From Candidatus Ventrimonas merdavium (GTDB lineage Bacteria > Bacillota > Clostridia > Lachnospirales > Lachnospiraceae): a stretch of DNA of 35,484 nucleotides. A program made the position numbers and the translations under genes. The notes under the pieces were generated by a model that saw only the letters and a list, made by a program, of their open reading frames with translations, did no database searches and was not told the origin of the DNA. The stretch lies in assembly GCA_018715565.1 (NCBI GenBank), contig DVLJ01000001.1, positions 1 through 35,484 on the forward strand. Reading direction: 5' to 3'. This document shows positions 3,424 to 19,413 of the stretch, one piece after another (within the stretch, counting starts at the first letter, position 1; every line of letters starts with the position of its first letter).

Positions 3424-3502
3424 TTTATTGTGTCTTTTTACTCCATTCGGAGTCGGAAAAGAACGATCGATACCTCTATCATCCGTTTCCCCCCACAAGC
3501 AA

Positions 3503-3548: not shown

Positions 3549-3575
3549 CGATCCAGATCCTATTCTGTTTGCTGT

Positions 3576-3611
3576 CTATCTTGCTTTCTATCCTTCTTTC
3601 TATCCTTTGCA
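3576..3611. repeat. Three tandem 12-bp units
   Basis: Three contiguous 12-base units: CTATCTTGCTTT, CTATCCTTCTTT and CTATCCTTTGCA, lying 16 bases past the MFS stop codon. They look like a slipped-strand low-complexity expansion. Confidence 0.6.
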
Positions 3612-3626
3612 AGCCAGTCTGCCAGA

Positions 3627-4967
3627 CTATCGCACTGGCTTCTTGATCAGCACACTGCACACGAACGCCAGCACCGCCGCCCCGATCATCGCCAGGAACG
3701 TGCTTAAGAACGAGCCGCTCCGGTCATACAGCATCCCTGCGATCGTGCTCCCGAAGGAGGAGACCAGCAGGTTCATGTTGATGATCGAAAAGTTCACCGG
3801 GTAATGGGTCCGGCCATAGTAGTCGCTAATGAACGCCGAGTTGGTGGGATTGATCCCGCCGTAGGAAAATCCCGTACAGATAAAGCCCACCGTGATCACC
3901 CCAAAGCTCTTCTGGATCAGGGCAAATACCAGCACGCCCACGGAGATCAGGAATGCCCCCGTGATGACCGCCATGGTCTTCCCACGGCCCATCCGGTCAT
4001 ACATCCCGCCGAAAATCACCCGGCCGATGCCGTTGCACACCGAGATCAGTCCCACCACCGTGGCGATCGTTCCCGCGTCCACGCCCTGGCCTACCTCCGA
4101 CGCTACGCCGGTGGCCTGAGAGATCAGCGCCAACCCTGCCGCGCTCAGCAGGATGGCCCATGCAAAATACAGCCAGAACGAGCTGGTCCGCAGCATTTCC
4201 ATCGGCGCCCAGTCCTGAGCCTGGCTGCCCACGCTGCCCGCGGCCTTGCCAAGCACCGGTGCCTTACCAGTCACTGAGGCCTTGCCTTTCGCTGAGGCCT
4301 TGCCTTCTGCTGAAGCCTTGCCAGCCGCCGGGGCCTTGCCGGCTGCTCTTCCGCCGCCCTCCGGCCCGGCAAGCCCTTCTAAGTCCTTCGCCGTCGGCTT
4401 TACAAAGAAGAAGCCGCACACGCCCATCACCACCAGGATCAGCGCGCCAAAGGCAAAGAAAGAGTTTCTCCACGCCTCTACGCCCACGCCGGACGGGGTC
4501 ACTGCCTGGTAGATCTTCCCTACCAGGAAGCTGCTGATCCCAAAGCCCATCAGAAGAAGGCCCGAGATCAGCCCCGGCTTATCCGGGAACCAGCCCGACA
4601 CCGTGCTCATGACCGCATTGTACACCAGGCCCGACGCAAATCCGCACAGCACCCCGTATCCCGCGTACAGCACGCCCACGCTCTGGGCCCGGGACGCGAT
4701 CAAAAATCCGATAAAGAACAGGACCGCCGACGCCCACACATGGATCCGCACCGGGATCCTCCGGTTGGCCAGCCCGCCTAAAAATCCTCCGATACAGAAA
4801 AATCCCATGCAAATCGTGAAGGTCAGGGACAGCTGCGCCTTGCTCCACTCTGGGAAATAGGCCGCCACCGGGGCGGACAGCACGCTCCAGGCGTACACCA
4901 GCCCCGCTAACAGCAGTACGATCACACCGGCGGCGGCATAAAGCCACCGCCTGTTCTTCCCGCTCAT
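3627..4967 (-). CDS. MFS transporter, oxalate/formate-antiporter (OFA) type
   Basis: A 446-residue, 12-helix major facilitator. The N-terminal segment [29 protein letters not shown] followed by [17 protein letters not shown] is characteristic of the OFA family, whose members carry small mono- and dicarboxylates. The motif [18 protein letters not shown] in the second half is the usual loop 8-9 signature. The start ATG overlaps the EtfA stop (ATGA), so it is translationally coupled as the last gene of the ten-gene operon, implying a role in uptake or release of the pathway acid. The central cytosolic loop (residues about 200-250) is enlarged by a six-fold repeat of a six-residue unit rich in Gly, Lys and Ala, absent from ordinary OFA proteins as far as I know. 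Substrate unknown. Confidence 0.85.
4243..4350 (-). repeat. Six in-frame 18-bp tandem repeats inside the MFS gene
   Basis: Six contiguous 18-base units. On the plus strand each begins GCCTTGCC or GCCTTACC, for example GCCTTGCCTTTCGCTGAG at 4279-4296. In the protein they give units of the form x-GKA-(S/P/A)-x at about residues 209-244 of the MFS carrier. The units keep frame and vary mostly at two or three positions, as expected for a coding minisatellite under weak constraint. Confidence 0.9.
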
Positions 4968-6145
4968 TTCTCCAGCTCCTCCAGGATCGCCGGGATCACC
5001 TTATAGAGATCCCCTACGATGCCGTAGTCCGCCACCTCAAAGATCGGCGCCGCCTCGTTGGTATTGATGGCGATGATCTGCTCCGAATTCTGCATACCGG
5101 CTACGTGCTGGATCGCTCCTGAGATGCCGCAGGCCACGTAGATCTTCGGCTTAACGGTGGTCCCGGTCTGGCCTACCTGGTACGCATGGTCGATCCAGCC
5201 TGCGTCTACCGCCGCTCTGGATGCCGCTACCACGCCGCCCAGCTTATCTGCCAGCTGCTTTAACAGTGCAAAGCCCTCCGGTTTCCCAAGGCCCATGCCG
5301 CCGGATACGATCACGTCCGCATCGGTCAGGGATACGGCGTCCTTCATGGTCTTGACCACTTCCACCACCTTCGTGCGGATATCCCCGTCCTGAAAGCACG
5401 GTTTTAACTCTACCAGCTGGCCTTTCCGGCCTGCCTCCCGCTCTGCCTTGGCCATTACGCCGGGACGTACCGTGGACATCTGGGGACGGTGGTTCGGGCA
5501 CACGATGGTAGCCATTAAGTTGCCGCCGAAGGCCGGACGGGTCTGCTTGATCTTCTTATCCTCCGGATCGATCTCCAGCTTCGTGCAGTCCGCGGTCAGA
5601 CCGGTGTTGCACTTTACGGCCAGGATCGGGCCTAAGTCGCGGCCGATGTGGGTCGCGCCTAACAGCACGATCTCCGGCTTATATTCCTGGATCGCGTCAT
5701 AGATCACCTTGCCGTAGCCGTCGGTGGTATAATCCTTCAGCTCCGGCGCGTCTGCCAGGTAGACCTTATCTGCGCCGTACTCGTAAAGCTCCTCTGCCAG
5801 ATGGGCCACGCCAGAGCCGCACAGCACCGCGCACAGCTCGCAGCCGATCTCCCCGGCCAGCTTCTTTCCTTCGCCTAACAGCTCGATAGCCACCGGCATG
5901 ATCTTGCCCTCTCTCTGCTCGGCAAATACCCATACGCCGTGGTACTGGCTTAAATCTTTAACTTCTTTTTCTTCCTCCGTCTTCTCGATCGCTTTGAACG
6001 GGCATTTCTCCACGCATACGCCGCAGCCGGTGCAGGCGGTCCCGATCACGGCCAGCCGGTCTTCCATGGTGATGGCCTCGAACGGACAGTTCTTCACGCA
6101 GATCGAGCATCCTTTACATTTTTCCTTGATCACATTTACTGCCAT
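4964..6145 (-). CDS. etfA: Electron transfer flavoprotein alpha subunit with N-terminal ferredoxin domain
   Basis: A 393-residue EtfA. The first 60 residues form a 2x[4Fe-4S] ferredoxin module with Cys10, 13, 16, 20 and Cys38, 41, 44, 48 in two CxxCxxC..CP motifs. The rest is a standard ETF alpha chain: an N-terminal alpha/beta domain (from about residue 70) and an FAD-binding domain from about residue 270 ([71 protein letters not shown]). EtfA proteins with such a ferredoxin extension are known from caffeyl-CoA reductase (CarE) and electron-bifurcating lactate dehydrogenase. With EtfB and the acyl-CoA dehydrogenase just upstream it probably forms a complex passing electrons from NADH to enoyl-CoA and ferredoxin. 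The stop overlaps the MFS start. Confidence 0.93.
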
Positions 6146-6167
6146 GTCTTTGTACCGTCCTTTCCCC

Positions 6168-6956
6168 TTACAGATAATGCTTCTCTTTCAGTTTTCCTAC
6201 CAGCGCCGCGCTCATCTCCTGGATGGTCCCGGCAAGCATCTCGCCTTTGCCCTTGGCCGGCGGGGTGAAGGAACGGAACACCTGGGTGGGAGATGCGTTT
6301 AAGCCGCAGTCCTTGGGATCCAAGCCCACGTCGTTGTGGTCCCACACCGTGATCTCTGCCTTGCAGGCGTCCACGATCCGGCCGATGTTCATGTATCTGG
6401 GGTCGTTCAGCTCTTTCACGCAGGTCAGCACGCAGGGGGTCTGTACCTCGATCACCTCATAGCCGTCCTCCAACTGGCGCTGTACGGTCACGGTGCCATT
6501 TCCCATGGACTGGATTTTCTGCACGTAGGTCACCACCGGAAGGCCCAGACGCTCCGCTACCTGGGGTCCTACCTGGGCCGTATCGCCGTCGATGGCCTGC
6601 CGTCCCGCAAAGATCAGGTCCGCTCCGCCTACCTTCCGAATCCCGGCTGCGATGGTGGTGGAGGTGGCGCAGGTGTCGGCTCCGCCGAACGCCCGGTCGC
6701 TTAACAGATAGGCGTTGTCTGCGCCCATGGCCAGACACTCTCTCAGCATATAGGACGCCTGGGGCGGTCCCATGGTCAGCACGTCTACCTCCACGTCCTG
6801 ATCCTCATCCTTTACCTGCAGCGCCGCTTCCAGCGCATTGGCGTCGTCCGGGTTTAAGATGCTGGGCACGCCGTCACGGATCAATGTCCCCTTTACCGGA
6901 TCGATCTTTACTTCATTGGTATCCGGAACCTGTTTTACACATACTACGATCTTCAT
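6168..6956 (-). CDS. etfB: Electron transfer flavoprotein beta subunit
   Basis: A 262-residue EtfB, full length. It starts [25 protein letters not shown], contains the AMP/FAD-binding stretch [24 protein letters not shown], and has [14 protein letters not shown], an element I associate with the clostridial butyryl-CoA dehydrogenase type of ETF in which the beta subunit carries the bifurcating [23 protein letters not shown] is the usual mid-protein signature. It lies 21 bases after the acyl-CoA dehydrogenase and 22 bases before EtfA on one strand, so the three are surely co-expressed. The heterodimer should be cytosolic. Bifurcation is inferred from family and context, not shown by sequence alone. 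Confidence 0.93.
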
Positions 6957-6977
6957 GGTCTTGTCCTCTCCCCTCTC

Positions 6978-8117
6978 TTATTTCTTCAGCAGCTTACCGG
7001 AGATCACCATCTGCTGTACCTGGCTGGTCCCCTCGTAGATGGTGAACACGCGGCAGTCGCGATACATCCGCTCTACCTTGTACTCTTTGATATAACCGTA
7101 TCCGCCATGGATCTGCACGGCCTTGGCCGCAATCTCATTGCAGACCTCCGCGGCGTAATATTTGGCCATGGAGGCGTTCATGGAGGCGTCCTGCTTGGTG
7201 TCCATCAGGTACGCGGTCTTATACACAAGCTGCTTGGCTGCCTCCAGCTTGGTAGCCATGTCAGCGATCATGAAGCCGATGGCCTGGAAATCTCCGATCC
7301 GGCGGCCGAACTGCTTGCGCTCCTTGGCGTATTTGATGGCCTCGTCTAAGCAGGCCTGGGCTACGCCGATGGACTGGGCCGCTACGCCCATACGCCCGGT
7401 ATCCAGGGTCTTCATGGCGTTGGAAAAGCCCTTGTTGATCTCGCCCAGCACGTTGCTCTTATGCACCCGCACGTTCTCCAGGATGATATCGCTGGTGGCG
7501 CAGCCGATCAGGCCCATCTTCTTCTCCGGCTTGCCGCAGGATACTCCTTCCTGCTTCATGTCCACGATGAACGCGGTGATGCCCCGGCTGCCTCTGGACA
7601 TGTCGGTCTTGGCGTAGACCACCGCAAAATCGGACAGGGGCGCCATGGTGATGAAGGTCTTGCGGCCGTTCAGCACGTAATAGTCTCCGTCCTCCACCGC
7701 CGTGGTGGTCATGCCGCCTGCGTCAGAGCCGGCTCCCGGCTCGGTCAGGGCAAAGGCTAAGATCTTCTCGCCGGTAACGACCGGACGCAGGTATTTCTCC
7801 TTCTGCTCGTCATTTCCCGCTAATAAGAGGGGACCGCCGGATAAGGAGTTGGGGGAGGATACGTAAAGGCTCGCCACGGCGCTCACCCGGGCGATCTCCT
7901 CCATCACCAGCACATAGGAACGGGAATCCGCTCCCTGGCCGCCTAACTCCTTGGGCACCTTGATCCCGAAGAATCCTGCTTTCGCCATCTTGTCCAGGAT
8001 CTCCTTGGGGAACTCTCCGCTCTCCTCTACCTGGTCCAGGATCTCTGTCGTCAGTTCCTTTTCCGCAAACTCTCTTGCCAGCTTGCGTACCAGCTCATGC
8101 TGCTCTGTGAAATACAT
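6978..8117 (-). CDS. Acyl-CoA dehydrogenase / enoyl-CoA reductase
   Basis: A 379-residue short-chain acyl-CoA dehydrogenase type flavoprotein, complete. Visible motifs: FALTEPGAGSDAGGMTTTA (substrate and FAD contact), the dimer signature around RKQFGRRIGDFQAIGFMIADM, QIHGGYGYIKEYKVERMYRDCR and IYEGTSQVQQ, whose Glu362 is in the position of the catalytic base of short- and medium-chain enzymes. With EtfB and ferredoxin-domain EtfA following directly, it more likely reduces a 2-enoyl-CoA to the saturated acyl-CoA, as CarC, Bcd and AcdA do, than oxidises fatty acids. The gene sits 17 bases after the acyl-CoA synthetase. This order (synthetase, dehydrogenase, EtfB, EtfA with ferredoxin) is the order of carB to carE in the caffeate operon. 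Chain-length preference cannot be read. Confidence 0.92.
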   Translation of the reverse strand: MYFTEQHELVRKLAREFAEKELTTEILDQVEESGEFPKEILDKMAKAGFFGIKVPKELGGQGADSRSYVLVMEEIARVSAVASLYVSSPNSLSGGPLLLAGNDEQKEKYLRPVVTGEKILAFALTEPGAGSDAGGMTTTAVEDGDYYVLNGRKTFITMAPLSDFAVVYAKTDMSRGSRGITAFIVDMKQEGVSCGKPEKKMGLIGCATSDIILENVRVHKSNVLGEINKGFSNAMKTLDTGRMGVAAQSIGVAQACLDEAIKYAKERKQFGRRIGDFQAIGFMIADMATKLEAAKQLVYKTAYLMDTKQDASMNASMAKYYAAEVCNEIAAKAVQIHGGYGYIKEYKVERMYRDCRVFTIYEGTSQVQQMVISGKLLKK

Positions 8118-8134
8118 AATGCTTCCTCCTCATT

Positions 8135-9757: not shown

Positions 9758-9769
9758 CGTCGCCTCCAG

Positions 9770-10552
9770 CTATCCTTTCTGGCATTTTTCAAACGCCGCC
9801 ACGGCCGCTCCCATTGCTCCCATATACTGGGCGTCCTCTGTGGTCAGCACCGGCACGCCTAATTCTCTGGCCAGCGCCTCCCGCACGCCCTGGTTCTTCG
9901 CCACGCCGCCTGTCATATAGACGTCGCTTCTCACATCCGCCCGCTTTGCCAGGGCGGCCACCCGGCTGGCCACGGAATTGCAGATGCCGGCCACCAGATC
10001 CGGGATATGGACTCCCTTGGACAGCTGAGAGATCACCTCTGATTCCGCAAACACGGTACAGGTGCTGGAGATCCGGGCGGGTTCCTTTGACTGGAGGGCA
10101 TATCCGCCTAATTCATCCACGTCCATCTGGAGGATCCCCGCCATCACATCCAGGAACCGGCCGGTTCCTGCGGCGCATTTGTCATTCATCAAAAAGTTTA
10201 AGATCCTGCCCTGGTCGTTCAGCCGGATCACCTTGGCGTCCTGTCCGCCGATATCGATGATCGTCCGGACGCCCGGAGCCACTGCGTACATCCCCTTGGC
10301 GTGGCAGCTGAGCTCGCTCATCTCGCTGTCCATGGAGGAAAAGGTGGCTCTGCCGTAGCCGGTGGCCATCACATAAGCCACCTGCTCCCGGCTGATCCCG
10401 CCCTGCTCCAGGACCGCCTCAAACGCCTGCCTGGGACCGTCGGTGCCGGTCCCCGCCACTACCAGGCTCTTTGCCGCAATGGCTGTTCCGTTTTCCAGAA
10501 GCACACATTTGGATGTGGTCGATCCAATATCGATTCCCAATGTGTAGATCAT
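9770..10552 (-). CDS. hgdC: 2-hydroxyacyl-CoA dehydratase activase (HgdC/FldI/LcdC type)
   Basis: A 260-residue ATPase of the BadF/BadG/BcrA/HgdC (ASKHA) family, the archerase that injects one high-energy electron into the dehydratase. The N-terminus has the phosphate loop GIDIGSTTSKCVL; DIGGQDAKVI is the second phosphate motif. Cys126 (NDKCAAGTGRF) and Cys165 (STCTVFAES) sit where the two cysteines per subunit coordinate the single [4Fe-4S] cluster at the homodimer interface. MTGGVAKNQGVREAL is the adenosine motif. The length is normal for HgdC. The gene is 9 bases after the LarA-like gene and 12 before the acyl-CoA synthetase. It is separated from its partner dehydratase (16961-19313) by two transcription units, whereas many clusters keep activase and dehydratase together. 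Confidence 0.94.
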   Translation of the reverse strand: MIYTLGIDIGSTTSKCVLLENGTAIAAKSLVVAGTGTDGPRQAFEAVLEQGGISREQVAYVMATGYGRATFSSMDSEMSELSCHAKGMYAVAPGVRTIIDIGGQDAKVIRLNDQGRILNFLMNDKCAAGTGRFLDVMAGILQMDVDELGGYALQSKEPARISSTCTVFAESEVISQLSKGVHIPDLVAGICNSVASRVAALAKRADVRSDVYMTGGVAKNQGVREALARELGVPVLTTEDAQYMGAMGAAVAAFEKCQKG

Positions 10553-10561
10553 GCTCTCCTC

Positions 10562-11872
10562 CTATTCCTGCGGCCATTCCGTCTCGATCAGGCTCCCGTC
10601 CTCCGCAAACCGCATGGGGACCGGACCGCTGACGAAATGGATGCCCGGCAGGTCTTTGATATCCTCATACAACGGCACCGACACCTCGATCGTGCTCATG
10701 GCCAGGGTATTCTTGATATGCACTACCCGGACCTTGCTGTAATCCGCGTTGTACAGGGTCTTTAAGCACATCTGGATGGCGTCCTTGTCATGGTTGGCAT
10801 AGATCGGGATCTGTCCTGCCGTCATGATCCCCGTAGTCAGGCCGTTGGTCCAGGTCACGTCCCAGTCCACGTCGTTCAACACCTTTCTGGTGGTGATATC
10901 GCAGGCAGAAAGGCCGCTCCCGTTGTGATGGGCCTGGGGGGTGATCCCCCGCACGAATAATTTCTTCAGATCCAGGGTGTCCTTGAACGTGCCGCCCAGG
11001 TTCCGCCCCGTCACGTTGGGGTCGTGGCCGTTCCCGCTGATGTTCTTGCCGATCTCGTCGATGATCAGCAGGTCGATGTGGTCGAACAGGAACTTGGCCA
11101 GCTTCTCCTTGGCGATCTTTAGCAGGCGGGCGTCCGTCTGGATCATCTGATCCGGCGTGCACACGTCGATGTTGCAGATATCGTCATAAGCGTTCTGGAC
11201 CACGCCCACGCCAAAGGCCACCGGGCATTTCTCCAGGAAGATCTCCGCTACCGGCGGGATCAGCTCCGCAAAGCGGTGGAACCCAAAGCTGTGGAACATG
11301 GCCGCGCCCTGATGCTTGGCGATGCCGATGGCGATCATCTTTAACAGGCCGCTTTCATGGGGCCCCCGAAAATCCGTATGGGGCTTTACCTTGTTGAAAA
11401 TGACGATGCCGTCGGATTCGTATGCGTACTTATCGCAGTATAACGGGATCCCGTTGAGATCTCCATACTGTACCACGTCCATGCTGGCCAGCAGAGGAAC
11501 GCCCATGCTCTCCTCCGTGATGTTGTAGCCGGCAAGCATTTCTACCTGTCCTTCCGCCACGCCGCCGCCGTGGCTTCCCATCGCCGGGATGATGAACGGC
11601 TTTGCGCCCCATTCCTTCAGCACGTCGCACATGGTGCGGACCATCACGTCCAGATCCGGGATCCCCCGGCTTCCTACCGTGATGCAGATCCGCTTGTCCC
11701 GGTACTGCTCATGATCCGGGAGCGCTTCCAGCTGGGCCCGCAGATGTCCCGCCGTGTCCGTGATCTTCTGACTGTCGTATTCCTGGTGGATCGTCACCAT
11801 CTCCGGCAGCGGCACGTTCTCCATCCCGGGGACCCGTGCATGGACTTCCGGGAAATCAATAAACATGCTCAT
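10562..11872 (-). CDS. LarA-like (DUF2088) nickel-dependent 2-hydroxyacid racemase/epimerase family protein
   Basis: A 436-residue protein of the LarA superfamily. LarA isomerises lactate by transient hydride removal with a nickel-pincer cofactor tethered to a lysine; homologs act on other 2-hydroxyacids. Recognisable features: VGSRGI near residue 66, MGSHGGG with His101, KPHTDFRGPHESGLLKM with His165, His172 and Lys178, then His194. From remembered L. plantarum LarA numbering (His108, His174, Lys184, His200), the Lys-to-His spacing of 16 and the His-to-Lys spacing of about 76 are reproduced, so the cofactor lysine and catalytic histidines appear present. Cofactor genes (LarB, LarC, LarE) are not in this window. 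It follows MaoC by 40 bases with a strong AGGAGG site. Inferred role: making the enantiomer the dehydratase accepts. A more distant DUF2088 function remains possible. Confidence 0.8.
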   Translation of the reverse strand: MSMFIDFPEVHARVPGMENVPLPEMVTIHQEYDSQKITDTAGHLRAQLEALPDHEQYRDKRICITVGSRGIPDLDVMVRTMCDVLKEWGAKPFIIPAMGSHGGGVAEGQVEMLAGYNITEESMGVPLLASMDVVQYGDLNGIPLYCDKYAYESDGIVIFNKVKPHTDFRGPHESGLLKMIAIGIAKHQGAAMFHSFGFHRFAELIPPVAEIFLEKCPVAFGVGVVQNAYDDICNIDVCTPDQMIQTDARLLKIAKEKLAKFLFDHIDLLIIDEIGKNISGNGHDPNVTGRNLGGTFKDTLDLKKLFVRGITPQAHHNGSGLSACDITTRKVLNDVDWDVTWTNGLTTGIMTAGQIPIYANHDKDAIQMCLKTLYNADYSKVRVVHIKNTLAMSTIEVSVPLYEDIKDLPGIHFVSGPVPMRFAEDGSLIETEWPQE

Positions 11873-11912
11873 GGATCGTTCCTCCTTTTTCCTTTCATAC
11901 GTTCTTCCGTTC

Positions 11913-12359
11913 CTACTGTCTTGCCATCTGCATCAGCGTCCATTTGCACTCCGTGACTACCGTTCCCTTCTGGTTCACCAGATTGGCGTCGATCTTTAGG
12001 ATCCCCCGTCCCGGCTTGCTGGTGCGGCGCGCCTCGGTGGGCGTCATCTCCAGATGGACCGTGTCGCCGATCTCCAGGGGCGCCGGATACTTGATGCTCA
12101 ATTCCAAAAACGCGATGGTCGTTCCCTCGAACATCCCGGTCTGATTGCTCATGCCGGTCATCAGGACCGGCCCCAGCATGCCGTGGGCCACCCGTTTTTT
12201 AAAGATGCTCACATTCCTTCCGTATTCCTCGTCCATATGGAGAGGGTTAAAGTCGCCGGATAATCCGGCAAAATTGACCACGTCGCACTCGGTCACCGTG
12301 CGCGCGATGCTGGTGTAGGTCTTTCCGATCTCAAAATCTTCCAGATACCATCCTGCCAT
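11913..12359 (-). CDS. MaoC-like (R)-specific enoyl-CoA hydratase
   Basis: A 148-residue hot-dog fold protein. The hydratase 2 motif is seen as FAGLSGDFNPLHMDEEY, giving the likely catalytic pair Asp36 and His41, followed by the conserved VAHGMLGP. Family members interconvert trans-2-enoyl-CoA and (R)-3-hydroxyacyl-CoA, and some act on other thioesters. It follows the crotonase-type hydratase by 17 bases and precedes the LarA-like gene in the operon. Having a MaoC hydratase directly beside an enoyl-CoA hydratase of the opposite expected stereochemistry is odd for a simple 2-hydroxyacid reduction. Together they could epimerise or bypass a 3-hydroxyacyl-CoA. A thioesterase-like role cannot be excluded, but the intact Asp/His motif favours hydratase. 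Confidence 0.85.
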   Translation of the reverse strand: MAGWYLEDFEIGKTYTSIARTVTECDVVNFAGLSGDFNPLHMDEEYGRNVSIFKKRVAHGMLGPVLMTGMSNQTGMFEGTTIAFLELSIKYPAPLEIGDTVHLEMTPTEARRTSKPGRGILKIDANLVNQKGTVVTECKWTLMQMARQ

Positions 12360-12376
12360 TTCCTTCCACCGCCTTC

Positions 12377-13150: not shown

Positions 13151-13160
13151 ATCCGCTTCC

Positions 13161-14396
13161 TTACTGCTCCGGCTTCCACACATACAGAGAACCATTTTCC
13201 AGCATGCCGGCGATCTGCTCGTCGGTGTAGCCGATCTCCTTTAAGATCTCCGGTCCCTGCTCGCCGATCAGAGGAGCGGTCCGTCCGTCCAGCTCGCCCT
13301 CGCTGTCGATGCGCACCGGGGTGTGGGTCACCTTCCGCACCTGTCCGTTGGGACATACGCAGTCGTAGAACGCGCCGATGGCGTTGGCCTGGGGATCCTC
13401 CAGGATCTCCTTCCAGCTGTAAGCCACGCTGAACGGGATGTCTCCCTCGGTCAGGATCTTCTTCCACTCCTCGCAGGTCTTCTGAGCGAAGGTAGCAGAG
13501 AACTCGTCGATACACTCGGTCAAATTCCCGGCTGCCAGCATATCCGCCTGGGGCCAGAACTTGCCGCTTTCGATCATATCCTTCCGGCCGATCACCTCGC
13601 AGAAATGCTCGAACCGGGGATTGTAATCCGGCATCGCGCACTGGATGATGCGGTCGTCGCTGGACAGATACGCGCCGTTCAACGGGTTCTTGTTGTCGTA
13701 GATGGAGATCGGATACTCCAGAGCCGCCCCGTTGTACTGAGCGCCCATCAGCATAACGGACTGGTTGAAGATCGCCGTCTCGTACAGGCTTGCGCTTACA
13801 AAATCGCCCTTGCCGGTCTGCTGCCGCTTATACAGCGCGGTCACGATACCCAGAGCCAGCATCAGGCCTACGTTGTTGTCGCCCAGGCCAGGGATCATGG
13901 TGATCGGCTGGCCGCCTCTGCGGCGCAGATTCTCCGTATATCCGCCTCTGCCGAAGAACGCGGTAAAGTCGTAGCCTGGCAGATCCTTGTCCGGACCGGT
14001 CTTGCCGTAGCCTAAGATCATAGAATAGATCAGCTTCGGATATTTGGTCTTTAATGTCTCATAGTCCAGGCCGGCTCTCTCCAGCGCTGCCAGACGCCAG
14101 TTGGTCACCAGCACGTCCGCATCCTCCAGAAGCTTCAGCAGAGCGTCCATGCCTTCCTTCGTCTTGGTATTGATGGAGATACATCTCTTATTTCCATTTA
14201 AATACTCCCAGGTGGTGTTCTCCAGCATCTGCTGGGGACGGCCCTCCTGCTCCTGGGTGTAGCGCAGCGGATCTCCCTTCGCCGCCTCTACGATGATCAC
14301 GTCCGCGCCATGGTCTGCCAGATAACGGCCGGTCGCCGCGGCTGCAATAAAGTTTGCCAGCTGAATGACTTTCACACCTTTTAATGCTTTATCCAT
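13161..14396 (-). CDS. Family III CoA-transferase (CaiB/BaiF/FldA type)
   Basis: A 411-residue enzyme of the formyl-CoA transferase family, which moves CoA between two carboxylates through aspartyl anhydride intermediates. The N-terminal Rossmann segment GVKVIQLANFIAAAATGRYLADHGADVIIVEAAKGDPLR is typical. The catalytic aspartate is most likely Asp173 in PGLGDNNVGL, followed by the family stretch ALYKRQQTGKGDFVSASLYETAIF. It is the first gene of the ten-gene operon and starts 97 bases from the divergent membrane-protein gene, with AGGAGG upstream. FldA (phenyllactate) and HadA (2-hydroxyisocaproate) are CoA-transferases of this family working with 2-hydroxyacyl-CoA dehydratases, so the natural role is exchange of CoA between the reduced product and the incoming hydroxyacid. 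Family members have varied acyl specificities, so the substrate is open. Confidence 0.92.
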   Translation of the reverse strand: MDKALKGVKVIQLANFIAAAATGRYLADHGADVIIVEAAKGDPLRYTQEQEGRPQQMLENTTWEYLNGNKRCISINTKTKEGMDALLKLLEDADVLVTNWRLAALERAGLDYETLKTKYPKLIYSMILGYGKTGPDKDLPGYDFTAFFGRGGYTENLRRRGGQPITMIPGLGDNNVGLMLALGIVTALYKRQQTGKGDFVSASLYETAIFNQSVMLMGAQYNGAALEYPISIYDNKNPLNGAYLSSDDRIIQCAMPDYNPRFEHFCEVIGRKDMIESGKFWPQADMLAAGNLTECIDEFSATFAQKTCEEWKKILTEGDIPFSVAYSWKEILEDPQANAIGAFYDCVCPNGQVRKVTHTPVRIDSEGELDGRTAPLIGEQGPEILKEIGYTDEQIAGMLENGSLYVWKPEQ

Positions 14397-14435
14397 CGTT
14401 TTTTCCTCCTAATGTTTTGTCTCCCTCTTCCTTGC

Positions 14436-14468
14436 TTGCATTCTTGTCTACTAGTTGATATACTAACA
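14436..14468 (+). promoter_or_regulatory. Promoter with overlapping operator, divergent region of units A and B
   Basis: TTGCAT (14436-14441), a 17-base spacer and TATACT (14459-14464) form a good sigma-A-type promoter for the plus-strand gene at 14494. The -10 is embedded in GTTGATATACTAACA (14454-14468), which matches 13 of 15 bases of the minus-strand element GTTAAAATACTAACA over the -10 of the dehydratase unit at 19416-19430. A TTGTCTAC (14444-14451) inside the spacer resembles the 8-bp units at 19372-19411. I see no equally good -35/-10 pair for the minus-strand operon in this 97-base gap. Confidence 0.6.
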
Positions 14469-14493
14469 TCACGATAGAAAAAGGAGAATCCAT

Positions 14494-15525
14494 ATGATTA
14501 CAATTGATCTTGCCAAAACACAGCATCATTTTATCGACGCCGACGAAGCCCAGGACCGGATCGCCAGTTCTCTAGCTCAGTCCGTCCAGTATACCGGGAA
14601 GAACCTGCTGATCAGCTCGGTGACCTTATGCGTCATCCTCTTTGTCAGCGCCGGCCTCATCGGCTACCAGCTCCGCTCCGGCGTAAATCCGGTCTACCTG
14701 ATCGTAGCCGCCGTCCTGCTCTTTCTCTACATGCCCCGCTGCCTGAAGGTATGGCAGGAATACCGGGACAGCTCAGGCATCCGCCTGCTGGAGGGAAAGG
14801 GGCCTCATCATTTTCTGCTCTGTCAGGCCGTATGTACCAGGAAGAATCCGGTCTCCCGGCACGTCTATTCCCTGCGGGTCCGCTGCAGCAATGAATCGGT
14901 CCTGGATGACGTCCTGGTCTCCAAAAAGGTCTATGACGCCGTCCAGGTCAAGGACCGGGTGACCCTGCTGGTCTGTGCCGACGCCGAGCGCTCCCAGGTA
15001 GCCGCCTTCCCCTCCGGCGTCTTCCGCCGCCAGGAGCAGGCCGCTCAGACTGTGGAGCAGCAGCCGGATACCCTGCGCCCGATGACCCCGGAGGAACGCG
15101 CCTTCTGCCAGCTGCAGTATGAGGACCGGATCCGGCAGCGGTCCGGCCTGTATGACCGGAGCTACGCCCTGATCATGATCATCTGCGCAGCTGCCGCAGC
15201 CGTTGGGATCGTGCTCCGGAGCAATCCTCTCATCTATCCGCCCCTGTTCGTCATCGTCCTGTTCGCCGGGATCCTGTTCATGAACCACGCCGAGGACGCC
15301 CGCGTGAAAAAGGCGCTGTCCGGCGATGGGGCCGTTTCCTGCGGGGAGGTCCGTGTAACGGAGCATCTCCATGACAGCTCCCAGGGATACCGGACCACGT
15401 TCTCCTGCGGGGACCGCATCGCCCTCACCAGCCGGAAGCGGGAAGATTTTGAATGGTTTTCCCTGCACGATCCGTGCCTCCTGGTCTACATCGGCAGGGA
15501 AAAGCCCATTCCGTTCAAGCAGTAG
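14494..15525 (+). CDS. Four-helix membrane protein with duplicated architecture, function unknown
   Basis: I do not recognise a family for this 343-residue protein. It has two similar halves. Each holds a hydrophobic hairpin (helices at about residues 37-59 and 64-80; 223-241 and 245-263) followed by a soluble segment rich in short beta-like strands (about 105-172 and 283-340). Each soluble segment ends similarly (VYDAVQVKDRVTLLV and DFEWFSLHDPCLLVYI). The middle (174-220) is polar and Gln/Arg-rich. It has a strong AAGGAG ribosome site seven bases before ATG. It is the only plus-strand gene in the catabolic island and shares an operator-like element with the dehydratase promoter, suggesting co-regulation. 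It could be a membrane sensor or accessory protein, but nothing in the sequence decides that. Confidence 0.8.
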   Translation: MITIDLAKTQHHFIDADEAQDRIASSLAQSVQYTGKNLLISSVTLCVILFVSAGLIGYQLRSGVNPVYLIVAAVLLFLYMPRCLKVWQEYRDSSGIRLLEGKGPHHFLLCQAVCTRKNPVSRHVYSLRVRCSNESVLDDVLVSKKVYDAVQVKDRVTLLVCADAERSQVAAFPSGVFRRQEQAAQTVEQQPDTLRPMTPEERAFCQLQYEDRIRQRSGLYDRSYALIMIICAAAAAVGIVLRSNPLIYPPLFVIVLFAGILFMNHAEDARVKKALSGDGAVSCGEVRVTEHLHDSSQGYRTTFSCGDRIALTSRKREDFEWFSLHDPCLLVYIGREKPIPFKQ

Positions 15526-15551
15526 CCCCACCGGCTGCTGCTTTTTCTTTT
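15518..15551 (+). terminator. Intrinsic terminator of the membrane-protein gene
   Basis: Arms AGCAGTAGCC (15518-15527) and GGCTGCTGCT (15533-15542) pair over ten bases with one G-U, loop CCACC, followed by a T-rich run. The stop codon of the gene lies inside the left arm. On the other strand there is no good T-tract. Confidence 0.8.
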
Positions 15552-15566
15552 ATGCAGATCCAGATT

Positions 15567-16913
15567 TTATGCAAATCCAAACATGAAGCAGAGCGGGATC
15601 AGCACGAACAGGGTGATGATCGGGATCACTACGTTTGCCACACCGGCCTGGATATAAGAATCCTTATGGGTATTGCCGGAGTAGTCGATAACGGTAACAA
15701 CCAGGCCGCAGTGGGGCAGGGAGTCTAAGGTCAGGGACGCCAGGCCGCTGATACGTGCCAGGCCCTGGATCTGAGCCGGGCTCATGCTGCCTACAAAATA
15801 CTCCTTGATGATCGGCAGAGCGATACCCTCACCGCCAGTACCGGAGCCGCATACGCCGGACATAGCCGCTACCGCCAGGGTGGATACGATCAGCGGATTG
15901 CCGCTGATGCTGGTCAGGCCGCCGATGATGGTGGCGAATGCCGGGGTTCCCTGTACCACAGAACCGAAGCCTACTACCGACGCCGTATTGAACAGCGAGT
16001 TCACGCCGCCCATCAGGCCAGAGCGCAGGGTCGGCCAGATCTCCTTCCAGTTAAGCTGCTTCATAAAGCATACCAGGGCTGCCAGCACACCGATGAACAG
16101 AGAGGTGGGAGCGCCCAGGCTGGTGAAGTTCAATACCACCAGCAGGATCGCCATCGGCACCAGGGAAAGCAGGAAGCCGGGAAGCTTCAAACCCTTTACC
16201 TTCTCGATCTCTTTTTTATCTGCCTCTGACATCTCAAAGTGCTCGCCTTTTTGTTTGGAGCGTTTTACGCACCAGTAGATCCAGGCAAATACCAGGACCA
16301 TCTCAAAGATACCTGCGATCATGCCGGGAACCAGCGCCGCGTTGTACGGCACGCCCAGAGCCTCTGCCGGGATGGTGTTCTGCAGCTGGGGAGAGCCGGG
16401 CATCCAGCCGGAAGCCGTGCCTGCGCCTGCAAAGTAGAAGGCCGGGATCAGCTTTCTGGAAATGTCCGCTTTCTCAAACATGGAGAGCATCAGCGGATAC
16501 AGGGCGAAGAAGCATACAAATACGGAAACGCCGCCGTAGGTCAGAACGAAGCCAGCGATCAGGATCGCCGGGATCACTGCCTTTTCACCAAACTTGCTGA
16601 TGATGCCGTTGGCGATCGCATTTGCCGCGCCGGTCACCTCATACAGCTTTCCGAACACAGCGCCCAGGATGAACATCCAGAAATAGTTTCCAAAATAGGA
16701 CGCCAGACCTGTGATATAGCTGGCCTTCGCCGTAGAATCAGCCAGCTGGGCCGTGCTGGTCATCCCCGTGATCACGCTCATGCCGCCGGTAAACACCTGC
16801 GCAGTCAGCAGGCAGAAAATACTTGCCAGGACTGCGGAAAAGAATACCGGGATCCCACGGAATACCAAAAATACCAACAATGCTAAACTTAATAAAATAA
16901 GAAAGATACCCAT
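15567..16913 (-). CDS. GntP-family carboxylate permease
   Basis: A 448-residue, roughly 12-helix permease of the GntP (gluconate/organic anion:H+ symporter) group. Features: repeated long hydrophobic helices, GGVSVFVCFFALYPL, the conserved GWMPGSPQLQNTIPAEALG loop, and AMSGVCGSGTGGEGIALPII followed by LDSLPHCGLVVTVIDYSG in the last third. Family members import gluconate, hydroxybutyrate and similar acids. It lies 47 bases after the HgdB-type subunit on the same strand and faces the plus-strand gene's terminator. Its place in the dehydratase unit makes it the best candidate importer of the hydroxyacid substrate. The polar stretch at about residues 218-238 is the central cytosolic loop. Confidence 0.85.
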   Translation of the reverse strand: MGIFLILLSLALLVFLVFRGIPVFFSAVLASIFCLLTAQVFTGGMSVITGMTSTAQLADSTAKASYITGLASYFGNYFWMFILGAVFGKLYEVTGAANAIANGIISKFGEKAVIPAILIAGFVLTYGGVSVFVCFFALYPLMLSMFEKADISRKLIPAFYFAGAGTASGWMPGSPQLQNTIPAEALGVPYNAALVPGMIAGIFEMVLVFAWIYWCVKRSKQKGEHFEMSEADKKEIEKVKGLKLPGFLLSLVPMAILLVVLNFTSLGAPTSLFIGVLAALVCFMKQLNWKEIWPTLRSGLMGGVNSLFNTASVVGFGSVVQGTPAFATIIGGLTSISGNPLIVSTLAVAAMSGVCGSGTGGEGIALPIIKEYFVGSMSPAQIQGLARISGLASLTLDSLPHCGLVVTVIDYSGNTHKDSYIQAGVANVVIPIITLFVLIPLCFMFGFA

Positions 16914-16960
16914 AATCGTTTCCCCTTCATCTTCTTATATGTTTTTCTCTATGGTTTCCC

Positions 16961-18076
16961 TTACAGAAGATCCTTAAATGTCTCGATCATCGTTCTTGCC
17001 TGCTCGTAATTGACCATCTGCCGGTCGGCTTCGATCAGCAGTACGGGGATCCCCGCTGCCTCGCAGGCCCGTTTGATCGGTACGTAGTCAAATTCCTCCG
17101 GATCGCAGAACTTGGTCATGATCAGGATCACGCCGTCGGCCTTCGCCGCCTTGGCCTGGTCTACGATCATGGCAACCCGCTTCTTATCCCGGTCATACAG
17201 AACGGAGCAGTTGTCCATATTGGCGAATTTCTCCGCCAGGCTGTCCAGGGCAGAAGCTGCTTCCCCGTTGTCCGTGCGGTACTGCCGGCTCTCTGCGGCC
17301 ACGTCGTCGCAGACGATCTGCAGGCCGTTCTCGTCGAAGATCTTTAACAGCTCCGGCGAATCAGTCAGCACGCCGGTGGTCATGATGCGCTTCTTCGCCG
17401 CTCCCGGCTGCTCCGCCTCCAGAGCCTGGATCAGCTCCTTCACCAGCTGGGTGTGCTCCTCCTTGCGCAGGAACCAGGCGCTCTTGAACACGTCGTTCCT
17501 CTGGACTGCGCTGACCTCCGGATGGTCTGCCAGGACTGCGGTCAGATGGCGCATAGCTTCATTGTGCTCATTGTAGACTCCTAAGGATTCCTGCAGCGCC
17601 TCCTCAGAGAACTGGGCTCCCGTCGCCTTTTCTAAGTCCCGCATCACCCGCTCATAGCCCGCCTTGGTATATGCGATGCCGTAAGCCGGTTTCCGGTTCT
17701 GAGGATAGGTCATGGGGATGAACGGGATCGACGGCACCGCGTATTTCCAGTTCTCTCCCAGTACCTTCAGGCTGTCGCACAGGCTGGGGACGATCAGGGC
17801 ACTGGCTCCTTCATAGGCGCCCTTCATGCCCATCTCCACGATGCTCTGCACGATCGAGCAGATAAATGCCGGGAAATACCGTTTGGCCTCTTTTAATTCC
17901 ACGTCGGCTCCCCATACGCCCATAGGAACCATGCCCATGGCATGGACCAGCTCCTCCGGCGTATAGACCGGCGCAGTCAGAACGACCTTCCGGCCCTCTG
18001 CCAGGTAGCGGTCCATCTGCTTTTTCGGATCGGAGGCAATGTCATGGAACTGGTTTAATAATTCCTTTACGCTCAT
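16961..18076 (-). CDS. hgdB: 2-hydroxyacyl-CoA dehydratase subunit B (HgdB/LcdB/FldC type)
   Basis: A 371-residue dehydratase component. The N-terminal part GRKVVLTAPVYTPEELVHAMGMVPMGVWGADVELKEAKRYFPAFICSIVQS is the family's conserved opening: promise of a new [4Fe-4S] ligand at Cys73, and further cysteines later in VPSLCDS and MTKFCDPEEFDY. Together with subunit A and after one-electron activation by the HgdC-type protein, it removes water from (R)-2-hydroxyacyl-CoA through a ketyl radical to give a 2-enoyl-CoA. The ATG lies one base after the stop of subunit A, so the two are coupled. Length and motif order suit a functional subunit. Substrate range in this family includes lactoyl-, 2-hydroxyglutaryl-, 2-hydroxyisocaproyl- and phenyllactyl-CoA. 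Confidence 0.92.
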   Translation of the reverse strand: MSVKELLNQFHDIASDPKKQMDRYLAEGRKVVLTAPVYTPEELVHAMGMVPMGVWGADVELKEAKRYFPAFICSIVQSIVEMGMKGAYEGASALIVPSLCDSLKVLGENWKYAVPSIPFIPMTYPQNRKPAYGIAYTKAGYERVMRDLEKATGAQFSEEALQESLGVYNEHNEAMRHLTAVLADHPEVSAVQRNDVFKSAWFLRKEEHTQLVKELIQALEAEQPGAAKKRIMTTGVLTDSPELLKIFDENGLQIVCDDVAAESRQYRTDNGEAASALDSLAEKFANMDNCSVLYDRDKKRVAMIVDQAKAAKADGVILIMTKFCDPEEFDYVPIKRACEAAGIPVLLIEADRQMVNYEQARTMIETFKDLL

Positions 18077-18077
18077 G

Positions 18078-19313
18078 TTAGTTTCCCTCCTTGTTCTGTT
18101 CCATGATCTCAGTCAGGCCCTGCACCCGCGTGTCATACTGCGCTTCCGAGAAGTTTCTGGGATCGGCCTGGTCGCCGTCGAAGCTGGCCACCGGGATGCC
18201 GCAGGCCTCGCCGATCTGACGGCTCATCTCATACATGAAGCCGCTCCACAGCTTGCAGGAGCGGTTGGTATGTACCAGCAATCCTTCTACGTGGTTGTCC
18301 TTGCAGAGCTTGATCCGCTTGTCTCTGGCCAGCTCCAGGTTGATAGCGTTGGGCACCTTGGCGTAGGCCCGGCACATATCGTCGAAATCGTCGTAGATAA
18401 AGCCGAAGGCGTCCGCATAGATGGTGGTCACCATGTTGATCCCCCGGCTCTTCAGTCCGGTGGAGGTGACTCTCAGCCACGGCCAGCAGGCGATCCCCTC
18501 GAACATGATGCGGTATTTTTCCTCTGCCCGGAAGGTGGAAACGCCCTTTTCGTGGTTCTCCTCGTATTCCTTCAGCAGGGTCTCCATGGCCTCCGCCGCC
18601 TCCAGCTTGCCTCTGGCCGTTACCATAACTGCCATGTGGTTTAACAGGTCGAAGCCGTTGAACGGAGACGGGACATACCTGGCGCAGGAGGTTGCCGCCA
18701 GCCATGCCCGGCTGGTGCGTCCGGAGATCTCCCGCACTTCCTCGTAGCGCTCATTGCTCCATTTCTTGCCGGTGATCTCCTCCAGCTGATGGATCGCATC
18801 CCAGAACTGGGCCTTCACGTACTCGGTCTCCGCGTCAGATACCTCATAGTCCGGGTTGAACGGGATATCGATCATGATCATCGGGATATCCAGCTCTTTG
18901 GCAATGTTCTCGTACCACTTGATCATGCAGTTGCAGATGTTGTTGCAGCACAGCAGGAAATCCGGCTGGGGCATGTTCTGCTCCGGCGCGTCCTTCACCT
19001 TGGCGTAAGCCAGGCTGATCCTTGCATAGGCGCAGATGTCGTTGGAATATCCGTCCGCCTCGCTGATCTCGCACATGCGCTCTCCGCCGCCTCTCGCCGC
19101 GATCCCTGCCGCCTGGTTCTCCGGATAGCAGACATACAGACCAAGGGTCTCCGGGATCTCTACCGGGAAGTTGCTGGAACACCATCCAACCATCTCTCCC
19201 CGCGCTTTCGCCTCGATCGCGTCGGTGTAAGCCTTCGCTGCGATCTGGCCAAGCTTGTACTTGGCCGAATTCGGATCCGGCGGCATGCGTTTCGGTTTCG
19301 TTTCTTCTGCCAT
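18078..19313 (-). CDS. hgdA: 2-hydroxyacyl-CoA dehydratase subunit A (HgdA/LcdA type)
   Basis: A 411-residue dehydratase component, first gene of its unit. Hallmarks: GWCSSNFPVEIPETLGL then CYPENQAAGIAARGG (residues about 43-76), Cys81 in ERMCE, Cys94 in DICAYAR, the cysteine cluster LLCCNNICNC (about 121-129), SPFNGFDLLNHMA, and the C-terminal HTNRSCKLWS and SFDGDQADPRNFSEAQYDTRVQ. The last segments and CNNICN-KWYEN resemble lactoyl-CoA and 2-hydroxyglutaryl-CoA dehydratase alpha chains as I remember them more than the aryl-type FldB, but I cannot rank that without alignment. It binds a [4Fe-4S] cluster and forms the heterodimer with subunit B. Transcription should start at the promoter near 19423-19451. 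Confidence 0.92.
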   Translation of the reverse strand: MAEETKPKRMPPDPNSAKYKLGQIAAKAYTDAIEAKARGEMVGWCSSNFPVEIPETLGLYVCYPENQAAGIAARGGGERMCEISEADGYSNDICAYARISLAYAKVKDAPEQNMPQPDFLLCCNNICNCMIKWYENIAKELDIPMIMIDIPFNPDYEVSDAETEYVKAQFWDAIHQLEEITGKKWSNERYEEVREISGRTSRAWLAATSCARYVPSPFNGFDLLNHMAVMVTARGKLEAAEAMETLLKEYEENHEKGVSTFRAEEKYRIMFEGIACWPWLRVTSTGLKSRGINMVTTIYADAFGFIYDDFDDMCRAYAKVPNAINLELARDKRIKLCKDNHVEGLLVHTNRSCKLWSGFMYEMSRQIGEACGIPVASFDGDQADPRNFSEAQYDTRVQGLTEIMEQNKEGN

Positions 19314-19371
19314 AGTCTTTCTCCTTTGCTTTTATTTGCTGACATCCGAAAGGCGGCGTAATCTTGAATCC

Positions 19372-19411
19372 TTGTCGACTTATTGTCTTGTCGTCTTGTC
19401 AACATGTCAAC
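19372..19411. promoter_or_regulatory. Array of five contiguous 8-bp units in the dehydratase leader
   Basis: Read on the plus strand the units are TTGTCGAC (19372), TTATTGTC (19380), TTGTCGTC (19388), TTGTCAAC (19396) and ATGTCAAC (19404), consensus TTGTCRAC. They begin a few bases downstream of the expected transcription start, a position suited to a repressor. The neighbouring GntR protein is the obvious candidate ligand, by inference only. Confidence 0.65.
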
Positions 19412-19413
19412 GT

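What the first reader, a model, noticed from the sequence alone, without database searches (positions are those of the whole stretch)
3627..19313. Candidate uncharacterised 2-hydroxyacid reduction island combining LarA-type racemase, HgdABC dehydratase and ferredoxin-domain Etf reductase
Thirteen consecutive pathway genes plus one membrane protein encode uptake, racemisation, CoA loading, radical dehydration and electron-transfer-flavoprotein-linked reduction. Parts resemble four known systems: acrylate pathway, Fld phenyllactate, Car caffeate and Cai carnitine. None of these as I know them has this exact combination of a family III CoA-transferase, an AMP-forming synthetase, two hydratases, LarA and two carriers. 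The substrate is open: small aliphatic hydroxyacids (lactate-like) are suggested by the dehydratase motifs and GntP carrier, aryl acids by the Fld/Car parallels.
Basis: partly seen in the sequence, partly recalled or inferred. Interest (0 to 1): 0.75.

Follow-up and report, generated by a model that had tools for sequence, protein, structure and literature searches.

The report
Nickel-racemase-equipped hydroxyacid respiration gene cluster
A bacterial gene cluster that appears to import a 2-hydroxy acid, flip its handedness with a nickel enzyme of unassigned role, remove water and then use the product as an electron sink through a close relative of the energy-saving caffeate reductase; if right, it gives that nickel enzyme group a testable job.

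Summary
In detail: 13 pathway genes (minus strand) and one membrane gene (plus strand) at 3627-19313. The gene set recurs in other Clostridia. Strongest new fact: the reductase is of the caffeyl-CoA reductase type (80% to CarC, 75% to CarE of Acetobacterium woodii), and CarC nests inside the clade of dehydratase-linked reductases. HgdABC keeps its ligand cysteines and its HgdA clade is separate from HadB. The racemase is not canonical LarA but nickel-pincer 'group 22': NPN-binding residues and both catalytic histidines are kept, D72 is absent, Q295 and K298 do not align. It is linked to dehydratase or reductase genes in 11 of 53 group-22 loci examined, all 11 in one supported clade; in one genome larC, larE and larB share the locus. 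Synthetase plus CoA-transferase fits the priming-plus-CoA-loop scheme of caffeate respiration. MaoC and ECH were not seen in related clusters. Best reading: electron-bifurcating respiration of an imported 2-hydroxy acid, with racemase and transporter as an optional module. Substrate: aryl-lactate most likely (about 0.5); sugar-acid-type transporters and racemase relatives keep a polar acid open. No enzyme activity was tested. New variant of a known kind.

The parts
18078..19313 (-). HgdA/HadB-like alpha subunit of a 2-hydroxyacyl-CoA dehydratase
   Evidence: Pfam HGD-D 237 bits; best PDB HadB 3o3m 415 bits with three cysteines aligned (C94, C127, C353); clade separate from HadB
16961..18076 (-). 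HgdB/HadC-like beta subunit
   Evidence: HGD-D 287 bits; best PDB HadC 3o3m_B 362 bits; C73, C100, C324
15567..16913 (-). GntP-type permease, possible importer of the hydroxyacid
   Evidence: PF02447 53 bits; a homologue is directly upstream of the racemase gene in L006, L007, L008, L009, L010 and L116; in the window itself it is not adjacent to the racemase gene
14494..15525 (+). 343-aa membrane protein of unknown role, plus strand
   Evidence: no Pfam/NCBIfam match; 27-30% homologues, opposite in strand to their neighbours, in L008 and L009; structure prediction poor (pLDDT 45.6)
13161..14396 (-). family III CoA-transferase (CaiB/Frc type), proposed CoA-loop enzyme
   Evidence: PF02515 257 bits; GLGDNN at 170 aligned with YfdW; homologues in L007, L010, L013, L015, L110-L115, L167, L168, L189
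12377..13195 (-). crotonase-type enoyl-CoA hydratase, accessory
   Evidence: PF00378 228 bits; best PDB 3-hydroxypropionyl-CoA dehydratase 206 bits; not seen in related clusters
11913..12359 (-). MaoC-like hydratase, accessory
   Evidence: PF01575 69 bits; not seen in related clusters
10562..11872 (-). nickel-pincer-nucleotide isomerase, group 22 (LarA superfamily)
   Evidence: NF052515 477.6 bits, cut-off 400; R69, H101, H165, K178, H194 align with LarA R75, H108, H174, K184, H200 and are invariant in 38 of 38 group-22 sequences; AlphaFold model pLDDT 94.4; the 18 PDB matches with E<=0.001 are 17 LarA- or malate-racemase-type chains and 4nar
9770..10552 (-). HgdC-type ATP-dependent activase
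   Evidence: TIGR00241 269 bits, cut-off 125; C126, C165
8135..9757 (-). AMP-forming acyl-CoA synthetase, CarB-like
   Evidence: PF00501 273 bits; 43.9% to A. woodii CarB; best PDB chains 8weu/8wev (fatty-acyl-CoA synthase/feruloyl-CoA synthetase) and 4-coumarate-CoA ligase; best NCBIfam name is a fatty acid CoA ligase model, below its cut-off
6978..8117 (-). enoyl-CoA reductase, CarC type
   Evidence: 670 bits to CarC 6fah_C, next best 397; 79.9% identity; CarC nests in its clade
6168..6956 (-). EtfB (CarD type)
   Evidence: NF040731 479 bits, cut-off 445; 71% to the EtfB of the car operon L188
4964..6145 (-). EtfA with N-terminal 2x[4Fe-4S] ferredoxin domain (CarE type)
   Evidence: 664 bits to CarE 6fah_A, next 334; 75.3% identity; eight cysteines in residues 1-60 and R203
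3627..4967 (-). MFS transporter near the oxalate/formate and lactate types
   Evidence: SfMCT 228 bits, below cut-off 320; 51-54% homologues in L007, L008, L009
19707..20417 (-). GntR/FCD transcriptional regulator, probable regulator of the cluster
   Evidence: PF00392, PF07729; GntR genes precede the cluster in L006, L110, L111, L115, L116, L189
19382..19410 (-). promoter-like element upstream of hgdA (10 of 12)
   Evidence: consensus scan (12 promoter-like sites found in 3000-21000, 7.8 expected in shuffles, sd 2.8); not evidence of function

Best explanation
The cluster encodes respiration-like reduction of an imported 2-hydroxy acid. (1) GntP and/or the MFS carrier imports the acid and exports the product. 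(2) The group-22 nickel-pincer enzyme interconverts the two enantiomers so that the (S) form can also enter. (3) The synthetase primes CoA activation with ATP; in steady state the family III CoA-transferase moves CoA from the saturated product to new hydroxyacid (a CoA loop). (4) HgdC activates HgdAB by ATP-driven one-electron transfer; HgdAB eliminates water from the (R)-2-hydroxyacyl-CoA through a ketyl radical. (5) A CarCDE-type reductase reduces the 2-enoyl-CoA with NADH while bifurcating electrons to ferredoxin, which Rnf could turn into an ion gradient. The substrate is most likely a 3-aryl-lactate (phenyl-, hydroxyphenyl- or dihydroxyphenyl-lactate), giving a (hydroxy)cinnamoyl-CoA and then an arylpropionate. 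Shown here: gene content, recurrence, CarCDE kinship, catalytic residues, NPN-cofactor genes, an rnfB match. Inferred: every reaction, direction, stereochemistry and the substrate.
For: In a 24-row tree CarC lies inside an 18-row clade (99/98): 9 reductases from dehydratase clusters with racemase, 6 without, 3 from CarAB-type operons, CarC among them; 4 reductases of other dehydratase clusters fall outside. SSPNSLxGGP is shared by 14 of 14 clade members compared, CarC and window included (4 of the 18 were not compared), versus SAHTSLGSWP in Bcd and TAGSSLVALP beside the HadB-like dehydratase (that this helix lines the acyl pocket is recalled). In a sample of 397 family genomes the dehydratase type is in 9, the CarE type in 7, both in 6, p=1.1e-10 (identity threshold chosen after seeing the hits, relatedness not corrected). 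In G113 the dehydratase genes have no reductase within the 19.9 kb held, but a CarABCDE-like operon lies on another contig. Racemase linkage: 11 of 53 loci, all in one 19-row clade (100/100), none of the 31 rows outside it. L168 carries larC, larE and larB in the locus; the own genome has larB, larC and larE together and an rnfB match. CarCDE bifurcation and the carA-E caffeate genes: passages of PMC5861303 and PMC10472528.
Against: No substrate is shown. Transporters beside the racemase gene are often GntP or, once, KdgT types, which point to sugar acids; some other group-22 genes sit beside galactarate/altronate-dehydratase-like genes. The synthetase (35-49% to the window) and HgdB (55-67%) vary more than HgdA (65-89%), so substrates may differ between clusters. 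G576 pairs a window-type HgdA (83%) with a reductase outside the CarC clade and an EtfA without the ferredoxin motif; that outside reductase also reads PNSLxGGP. EtfA in L015 and L189 also lacks the ferredoxin domain, so bifurcation through it is not universal. The best NCBIfam name of the synthetase is a fatty acid CoA ligase and that of the reductase is acryloyl-CoA reductase, both below cut-off. ECH is short-chain-like. D72 is absent and Q295/K298 do not align, so racemisation is an inference. No FldBC or LcdAB sequence could be placed in the dehydratase tree. Many dehydratase clusters lack the racemase (L110-L115, L189).
Confidence: 0.5

Rival explanations
1. Same pathway, polar substrate: a hydroxylated or sugar-derived 2-hydroxy acid is imported by GntP, epimerised by the group-22 enzyme, dehydrated as its CoA ester and reduced by a CarC relative of altered specificity.
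For: GntP directly upstream of the racemase in 6 of 6 loci of its subclade outside the window; KdgT next to it in L168; group-22 gene after a GarD-like dehydratase in L011 and, by eye, after a UxaA-like and before a DHAD-like gene in L012 and beside UxaA- and TctA-like genes in L173 and L174.
Against: Pocket-helix residues are unchanged in the 14 clade members compared; CarC itself nests in the clade; nearest solved relatives of the synthetase include feruloyl- and coumaroyl-CoA ligases.
Confidence: 0.22
2. Acrylate-pathway variant for short aliphatic acids (lactate, 2-hydroxybutyrate) ending in propionate or butyrate.
For: NCBIfam acryloyl-CoA reductase models are the top names for EtfA and the reductase and second for EtfB (446, 418, 317 bits); the MFS is near lactate transporters; ECH and MaoC fit short enoyl-CoAs.
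Against: All three Acr models are below their cut-offs (600, 640, 475); CarC and CarE are much closer than other solved proteins, though no AcrC sequence was compared; the genome already has a canonical lactate racemase.
Confidence: 0.15
3. Reductive Stickland branch of amino-acid fermentation (Had/Fld type) with the racemase as a bystander.
For: Same core enzymes (HgdABC, family III CoA-transferase, ACD-EtfAB); a D-2-hydroxyacid dehydrogenase lies divergently near the racemase-free cluster of G113.
Against: No 2-hydroxyacid dehydrogenase was seen by eye among the genes of the racemase-linked clusters (no profile search was run for it); G670 carries a HadB-like cluster (74% to HadB) next to this type; the own genome has another dehydratase cluster on C63 (L122); racemase linkage recurs in differing gene orders.
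Confidence: 0.06
4. The cluster runs in the oxidative direction (saturated acid to 2- or 3-hydroxyacid) using ECH/MaoC.
For: Presence of two hydratases.
Against: The hydratases were not seen in related clusters; the ferredoxin-domain Etf of CarE type fits reduction with bifurcation; the ATP-dependent radical dehydratase acts in the dehydration direction (recalled).
Confidence: 0.04

Closest known systems
Caffeate respiration operon carABCDE of Acetobacterium woodii
   Same: CarC 79.9%, CarE 75.3%, EtfB 71%, CarB-like synthetase 43.9%; CoA-transferase plus synthetase; EtfA ferredoxin domain with eight cysteines
   Different: CarA is PF01144 (family I), here PF02515 (family III); no dehydratase or racemase beside the car operon in L188; PadR-type regulator beside it, here GntR
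HadBC-I / FldBC-I 2-hydroxyacyl-CoA dehydratase clusters (Clostridioides difficile, Clostridium sporogenes)
   Same: HgdABC, CoA-transferase, ACD-EtfAB (family III for Had/Fld recalled)
   Different: 49% to HadB and 45% to HadC; has a synthetase, a CarCDE-type reductase, transporters and a racemase; no LdhA-like gene seen in the cluster. FldBC could not be compared
Acrylate pathway (LcdABC, AcrABC, lactate racemase)
   Same: Racemase, CoA loading, dehydration, Etf-linked reduction
   Different: Below the Acr model cut-offs; racemase not of the lactate type; different CoA-transferase family (recalled for Pct). LcdAB could not be compared
LarA superfamily, nickel-pincer group 22
   Same: NF052515 over cut-off; NPN-binding residues and both catalytic histidines
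   Different: 42 of the 53 loci examined show no link to this pathway (short contigs among them). 'Group 22' does not occur in the main texts of PMC7583248, PMC11770544 or PMC12611868; I read parts of these, not the supplements

Membership tests
Caffeyl-CoA reductase CarCDE | High sequence identity and common clade with CarC/CarE | tested here: met
   79.9% and 75.3% identity; CarC inside the clade
[quoted passage not shown]
   Cys 10,13,16,20,38,41,44,48; R203 in QTRPAF
Caffeyl-CoA reductase CarCDE | Reduces caffeyl-CoA with NADH and ferredoxin | not testable with these tools
   needs enzyme assay
carABCDE operon | Family I CoA-transferase CarA beside carB-E | tested here: not met
   CoA-transferase is PF02515; A. 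woodii CarA is PF01144
2-Hydroxyacyl-CoA dehydratase (HgdABC type) | Two HGD-D subunits and a BcrAD_BadFG activase | tested here: met
2-Hydroxyacyl-CoA dehydratase (HgdABC type) | Three cysteine ligands of the alpha-subunit cluster | tested here: met
   C94, C127, C353 align with HadB cysteines; that these are the ligands is recalled, the number three is stated in PMC11574389
2-Hydroxyisocaproyl-CoA dehydratase HadBC | Passes the HadB and HadC models, groups with HadB | tested here: not met
   499 of 750 and 436 of 700 bits; separate clade
LarA superfamily group 22 | NF052515 cut-off | tested here: met
   477.6 bits, cut-off 400
LarA superfamily group 22 | NPN-binding R75, K184, H200 and catalytic H108, H174 | tested here: met
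   R69, K178, H194, H101, H165; invariant in 38 of 38
LarA superfamily group 22 | Binds NPN and isomerises a substrate | not testable with these tools
   needs enzyme assay
Canonical LarA racemase | D72, Q295, K298 | tested here: not met
   D72 absent; Q295/K298 not conserved, but the C-terminal alignment is uncertain
Acryloyl-CoA reductase AcrABC | NCBIfam cut-offs | tested here: not met
   446/600, 317/475, 418/640 bits
Family III CoA-transferase | PF02515 and Asp of the GLGD motif | tested here: met
   257 bits; GLGDNN at 170; the role of the Asp is recalled

The most novel reading that the evidence does not exclude
Group-22 nickel-pincer enzymes of this clade are aryl-lactate racemases that let Clostridia respire both enantiomers of aryl-lactates (for example L-aryl-lactates made by other bacteria; recalled) through a CarCDE-type bifurcating reductase: a new anaerobic respiration module and a first role for an unassigned nickel-enzyme group with a divergent substrate domain.
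Probability: 0.35. Interest if true: 0.72.

Novelty: new variant of a known kind. Interest (0 to 1): 0.52.

Why it matters
It joins two known anaerobic systems (radical 2-hydroxyacyl-CoA dehydration and electron-bifurcating caffeate respiration) and ties them to a nickel-pincer enzyme group for which I found no assigned activity in what I read. It predicts that some Clostridia conserve energy by reducing hydroxyacids, possibly aryl-lactates to arylpropionates, and it names enzymes and a substrate list to test.

Tried and rejected
Acrylate pathway by name: AcrABC models are among the top NCBIfam names but all three are below cut-off, and CarC/CarE are far closer than other solved proteins. Canonical lactate racemase: rejected; group 22 instead, and a separate LarA exists. 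Had-type dehydratase: rejected by identity and tree. A PDB sequence search with the racemase gave only chance hits, so a structure model was made and compared by fold (TM-scores 0.46-0.54 and 13-17% identity for the 18 significant chains, so the overall match is modest; 4nar, a Thermotoga protein labelled putative uronate isomerase, is one of them and also matches the own canonical LarA by sequence). The structure of the membrane protein was poor. The synthetase tree resolved little. Operator search upstream of the cluster was inconclusive. Promoter and terminator counts are near shuffled expectation.

Literature. Caffeyl-CoA reductase together with 2-hydroxyacyl-CoA dehydratase: 0 papers in the held library. 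Lactate racemase with hydroxyacyl-CoA dehydratase: one paper on brewing bacteria, only its listing seen. Searches (7 of 7 listed; 15 of 344,809; 25 of 35; 0; 15 of 55; 1) listed no title or abstract start on this gene set. Absence from print is not claimed beyond these searches. Papers: passages only of PMC7583248 (plus part 3 of 6), PMC12611868 (plus part 1 of 5), PMC5861303, PMC11574389, PMC10472528, PMC9232219; parts 1-3 of 6 of PMC11770544.

Rows dropped or not examined: racemase loci L017-L019, L163, L181 and L185 gave no racemase frame in the context script and are not in the 53; L125, L169 and L172 were too short for the tree. Of the 40 family-level racemase places, stretches were not fetched for several of the less related ones (under 41% identity); the six with 50% or more were. 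'Linked' means at least one HgdA/B/C, ACD or Etf gene at 57% or more in the held stretch; L010 is linked by HgdC alone (with CoA-transferase and synthetase), L009 by EtfA and EtfB. L008 has the gene order of L009 but none of these genes on its contig and is not counted. L014 is a short contig. L116 is a close relative of L006.

Full report
Observation. Thirteen pathway genes lie on the minus strand; the membrane protein 14494-15525 lies on the plus strand and splits them into two likely units. A GntR/FCD regulator at 19707-20417 should be added; GntR genes stand before the cluster in L006, L110, L111, L115, L116 and L189. MaoC and ECH were not seen in the stretches held of related clusters.

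Reductase. The acyl-CoA dehydrogenase matches CarC of the A. woodii caffeyl-CoA reductase with 670 bits (next 397) and the ferredoxin-domain EtfA matches CarE with 664 bits (next 334). Identities are 79.9% and 75.3%. In a 24-row tree CarC sits inside an 18-row clade (99/98): 9 reductases from dehydratase clusters with racemase, 6 from dehydratase clusters without it, 3 from CarAB-type operons with CarC among them. Four reductases of other dehydratase clusters, Had-like ones included, fall outside. SSPNSLxGGP is shared by the 14 clade members compared, CarC and window included, and differs from Bcd and from the reductase beside the HadB-like dehydratase; L113, outside the clade, also reads PNSLxGGP. 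That this helix lines the acyl pocket is recalled.

Dehydratase. HgdA and HgdB are nearest to HadB and HadC among solved proteins but only 49% and 45% identical, below the HadB and HadC model cut-offs, and HgdA is in a clade separate from HadB. The aligned cysteines are kept. Genome G670 carries this type next to a HadB-like cluster (74% to HadB), which argues for a different substrate; the window's own genome has another dehydratase cluster on contig C63 (L122).

Conservation. In a sample of 397 genomes of the same family, 9 have the dehydratase type at 76% or more (one, G496, a partial copy at a contig end) and 7 the CarE type at E<=1e-170; 6 have both, p=1.1e-10, with the threshold chosen after seeing the hits and without correction for relatedness. 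The three dehydratase genomes without a CarE match are G539, whose copy is cut by a contig end (L116), G496 (68% complete) and G576, which has a different reductase and an EtfA without the ferredoxin motif. In 291 genomes of the class, 6 have the CarE type at E<=1e-165. Together 11 distinct genomes pass one or other threshold: 8 next to HgdAB (G000, G348, G453, G510, G670, G121, G205, G210) and 3 in CarAB-type operons (G090, G536, G113); G539 would be a ninth of the first kind. In G113 the dehydratase genes stand without a reductase in the stretch held while a CarABCDE-like operon is on another contig. EtfA of L015 and L189 lacks the ferredoxin domain.

Racemase. The LarA-like protein is nickel-pincer group 22. 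The counterparts of LarA R75, H108, H174, K184 and H200 are R69, H101, H165, K178 and H194, invariant in 38 of 38 group-22 sequences; D72 is absent and Q295 and K298 do not align. The model has pLDDT 94.4; of 18 PDB chains with E<=0.001, 17 are LarA- or malate-racemase-type entries and one is 4nar, at TM-scores of 0.46-0.54. Of 53 group-22 loci whose neighbours were examined, window included, 11 are linked to HgdABC or CarCDE genes; in the 50-row tree all 11 lie in one 19-row clade (100/100) with L008 (gene order only) and 7 unlinked rows, and none of the 31 other rows is linked. The gene stands beside GntP, HgdC, CaiB, the synthetase or another membrane protein in different genomes, so the association has survived rearrangement. 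In L168 a KdgT-type permease, larC, larE and larB follow it. The window's genome has larB, larC and larE together and a separate canonical LarA over its cut-off, which makes lactate a less likely substrate for the group-22 enzyme. The genome's two other group-22 genes lie outside this clade, one of them beside genes that look like sugar-acid metabolism by eye.

Mechanism. Here the transferase is of family III, the kind that Had and Fld systems use for hydroxyacids (recalled). CarCDE bifurcates from NADH to enoyl-CoA and ferredoxin (PMC5861303 passages), and the genome has an rnfB match over its cut-off when matches further along the frame are added (79.3 against 68.7 bits); the other Rnf subunits were not searched. 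This gives an energy-conserving scheme for an external 2-hydroxyacid. No 2-hydroxyacid dehydrogenase was seen by eye among the genes of the racemase-linked clusters, whereas one lies divergently near the racemase-free cluster of G113. Enzyme activities were not tested.

Substrate. For aryl-lactates: CarC kinship and helix, the co-occurrence, the split arrangement in G113, and the synthetase's nearest solved relatives (8weu/8wev, the latter feruloyl-CoA synthetase, 217 bits; 4-coumarate-CoA ligase 215; A. woodii CarB has the same kind of neighbours). Against: GntP and KdgT transporters, polar contexts of some other group-22 genes, variable synthetases (35-49% to the window) whose best NCBIfam name is a fatty acid CoA ligase below cut-off, and a short-chain-like ECH. 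I put aryl-lactate at about 0.5, polar hydroxyacid 0.22, short aliphatic 0.15.

Verdict. A real, recurring cluster; a new variant that joins known modules and gives an unassigned nickel-enzyme group a likely pathway. Interest 0.52.

Noticed in passing
21036-23561 (-): 841-aa fusion with hydroxymethylbilane synthase, uroporphyrinogen-III C-methyltransferase and uroporphyrinogen-III synthase domains.
   Followed up: no
L168:8961-13841: Group-22 racemase, KdgT-type permease, LarC, LarE and LarB in a row within the dehydratase/CarCDE cluster.
   Followed up: yes
L009:1765-2775, L008:259-1269, L010:5788-6317, L110:18946-19901: An MBL-fold hydrolase recurs beside these genes (L009 by Pfam/NCBIfam; the others by similar N-termini, by eye). 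Role unknown.
   Followed up: partly
L006:7430-8551, L110:11801-12922, L189:4982-6172, L171:7757-8917: A 370-400 aa membrane-like protein recurs in the clusters and, by eye, beside a HadB-like cluster (L121); L006 and L189 copies have no Pfam match. Perhaps a carrier.
   Followed up: partly
L006, L115, L116, L189 upstream of hgdC/hgdA: TTGTATACTAG-like or CTAGTATAC-like sequences recur, a possible GntR operator; the window instead has GTCGACAAG, shared with L131.
   Followed up: partly
L122 (own genome, C63): Another, more distant CoA-transferase-HgdABC-ACD-EtfAB cluster in the same genome (36-61% identity to the window's genes), beside a 448-aa frame that was not identified.
   Followed up: no
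L011:8803-11302, L012:8778-11287: Group-22 racemase directly after a GarD/UxaA-type dehydratase (L011 by profile; L012 by eye), suggesting sugar-acid-like epimerisation in other members.
   Followed up: partly
34722-35484 (-): Contig end cuts a gene for a P-type calcium ATPase.
   Followed up: no
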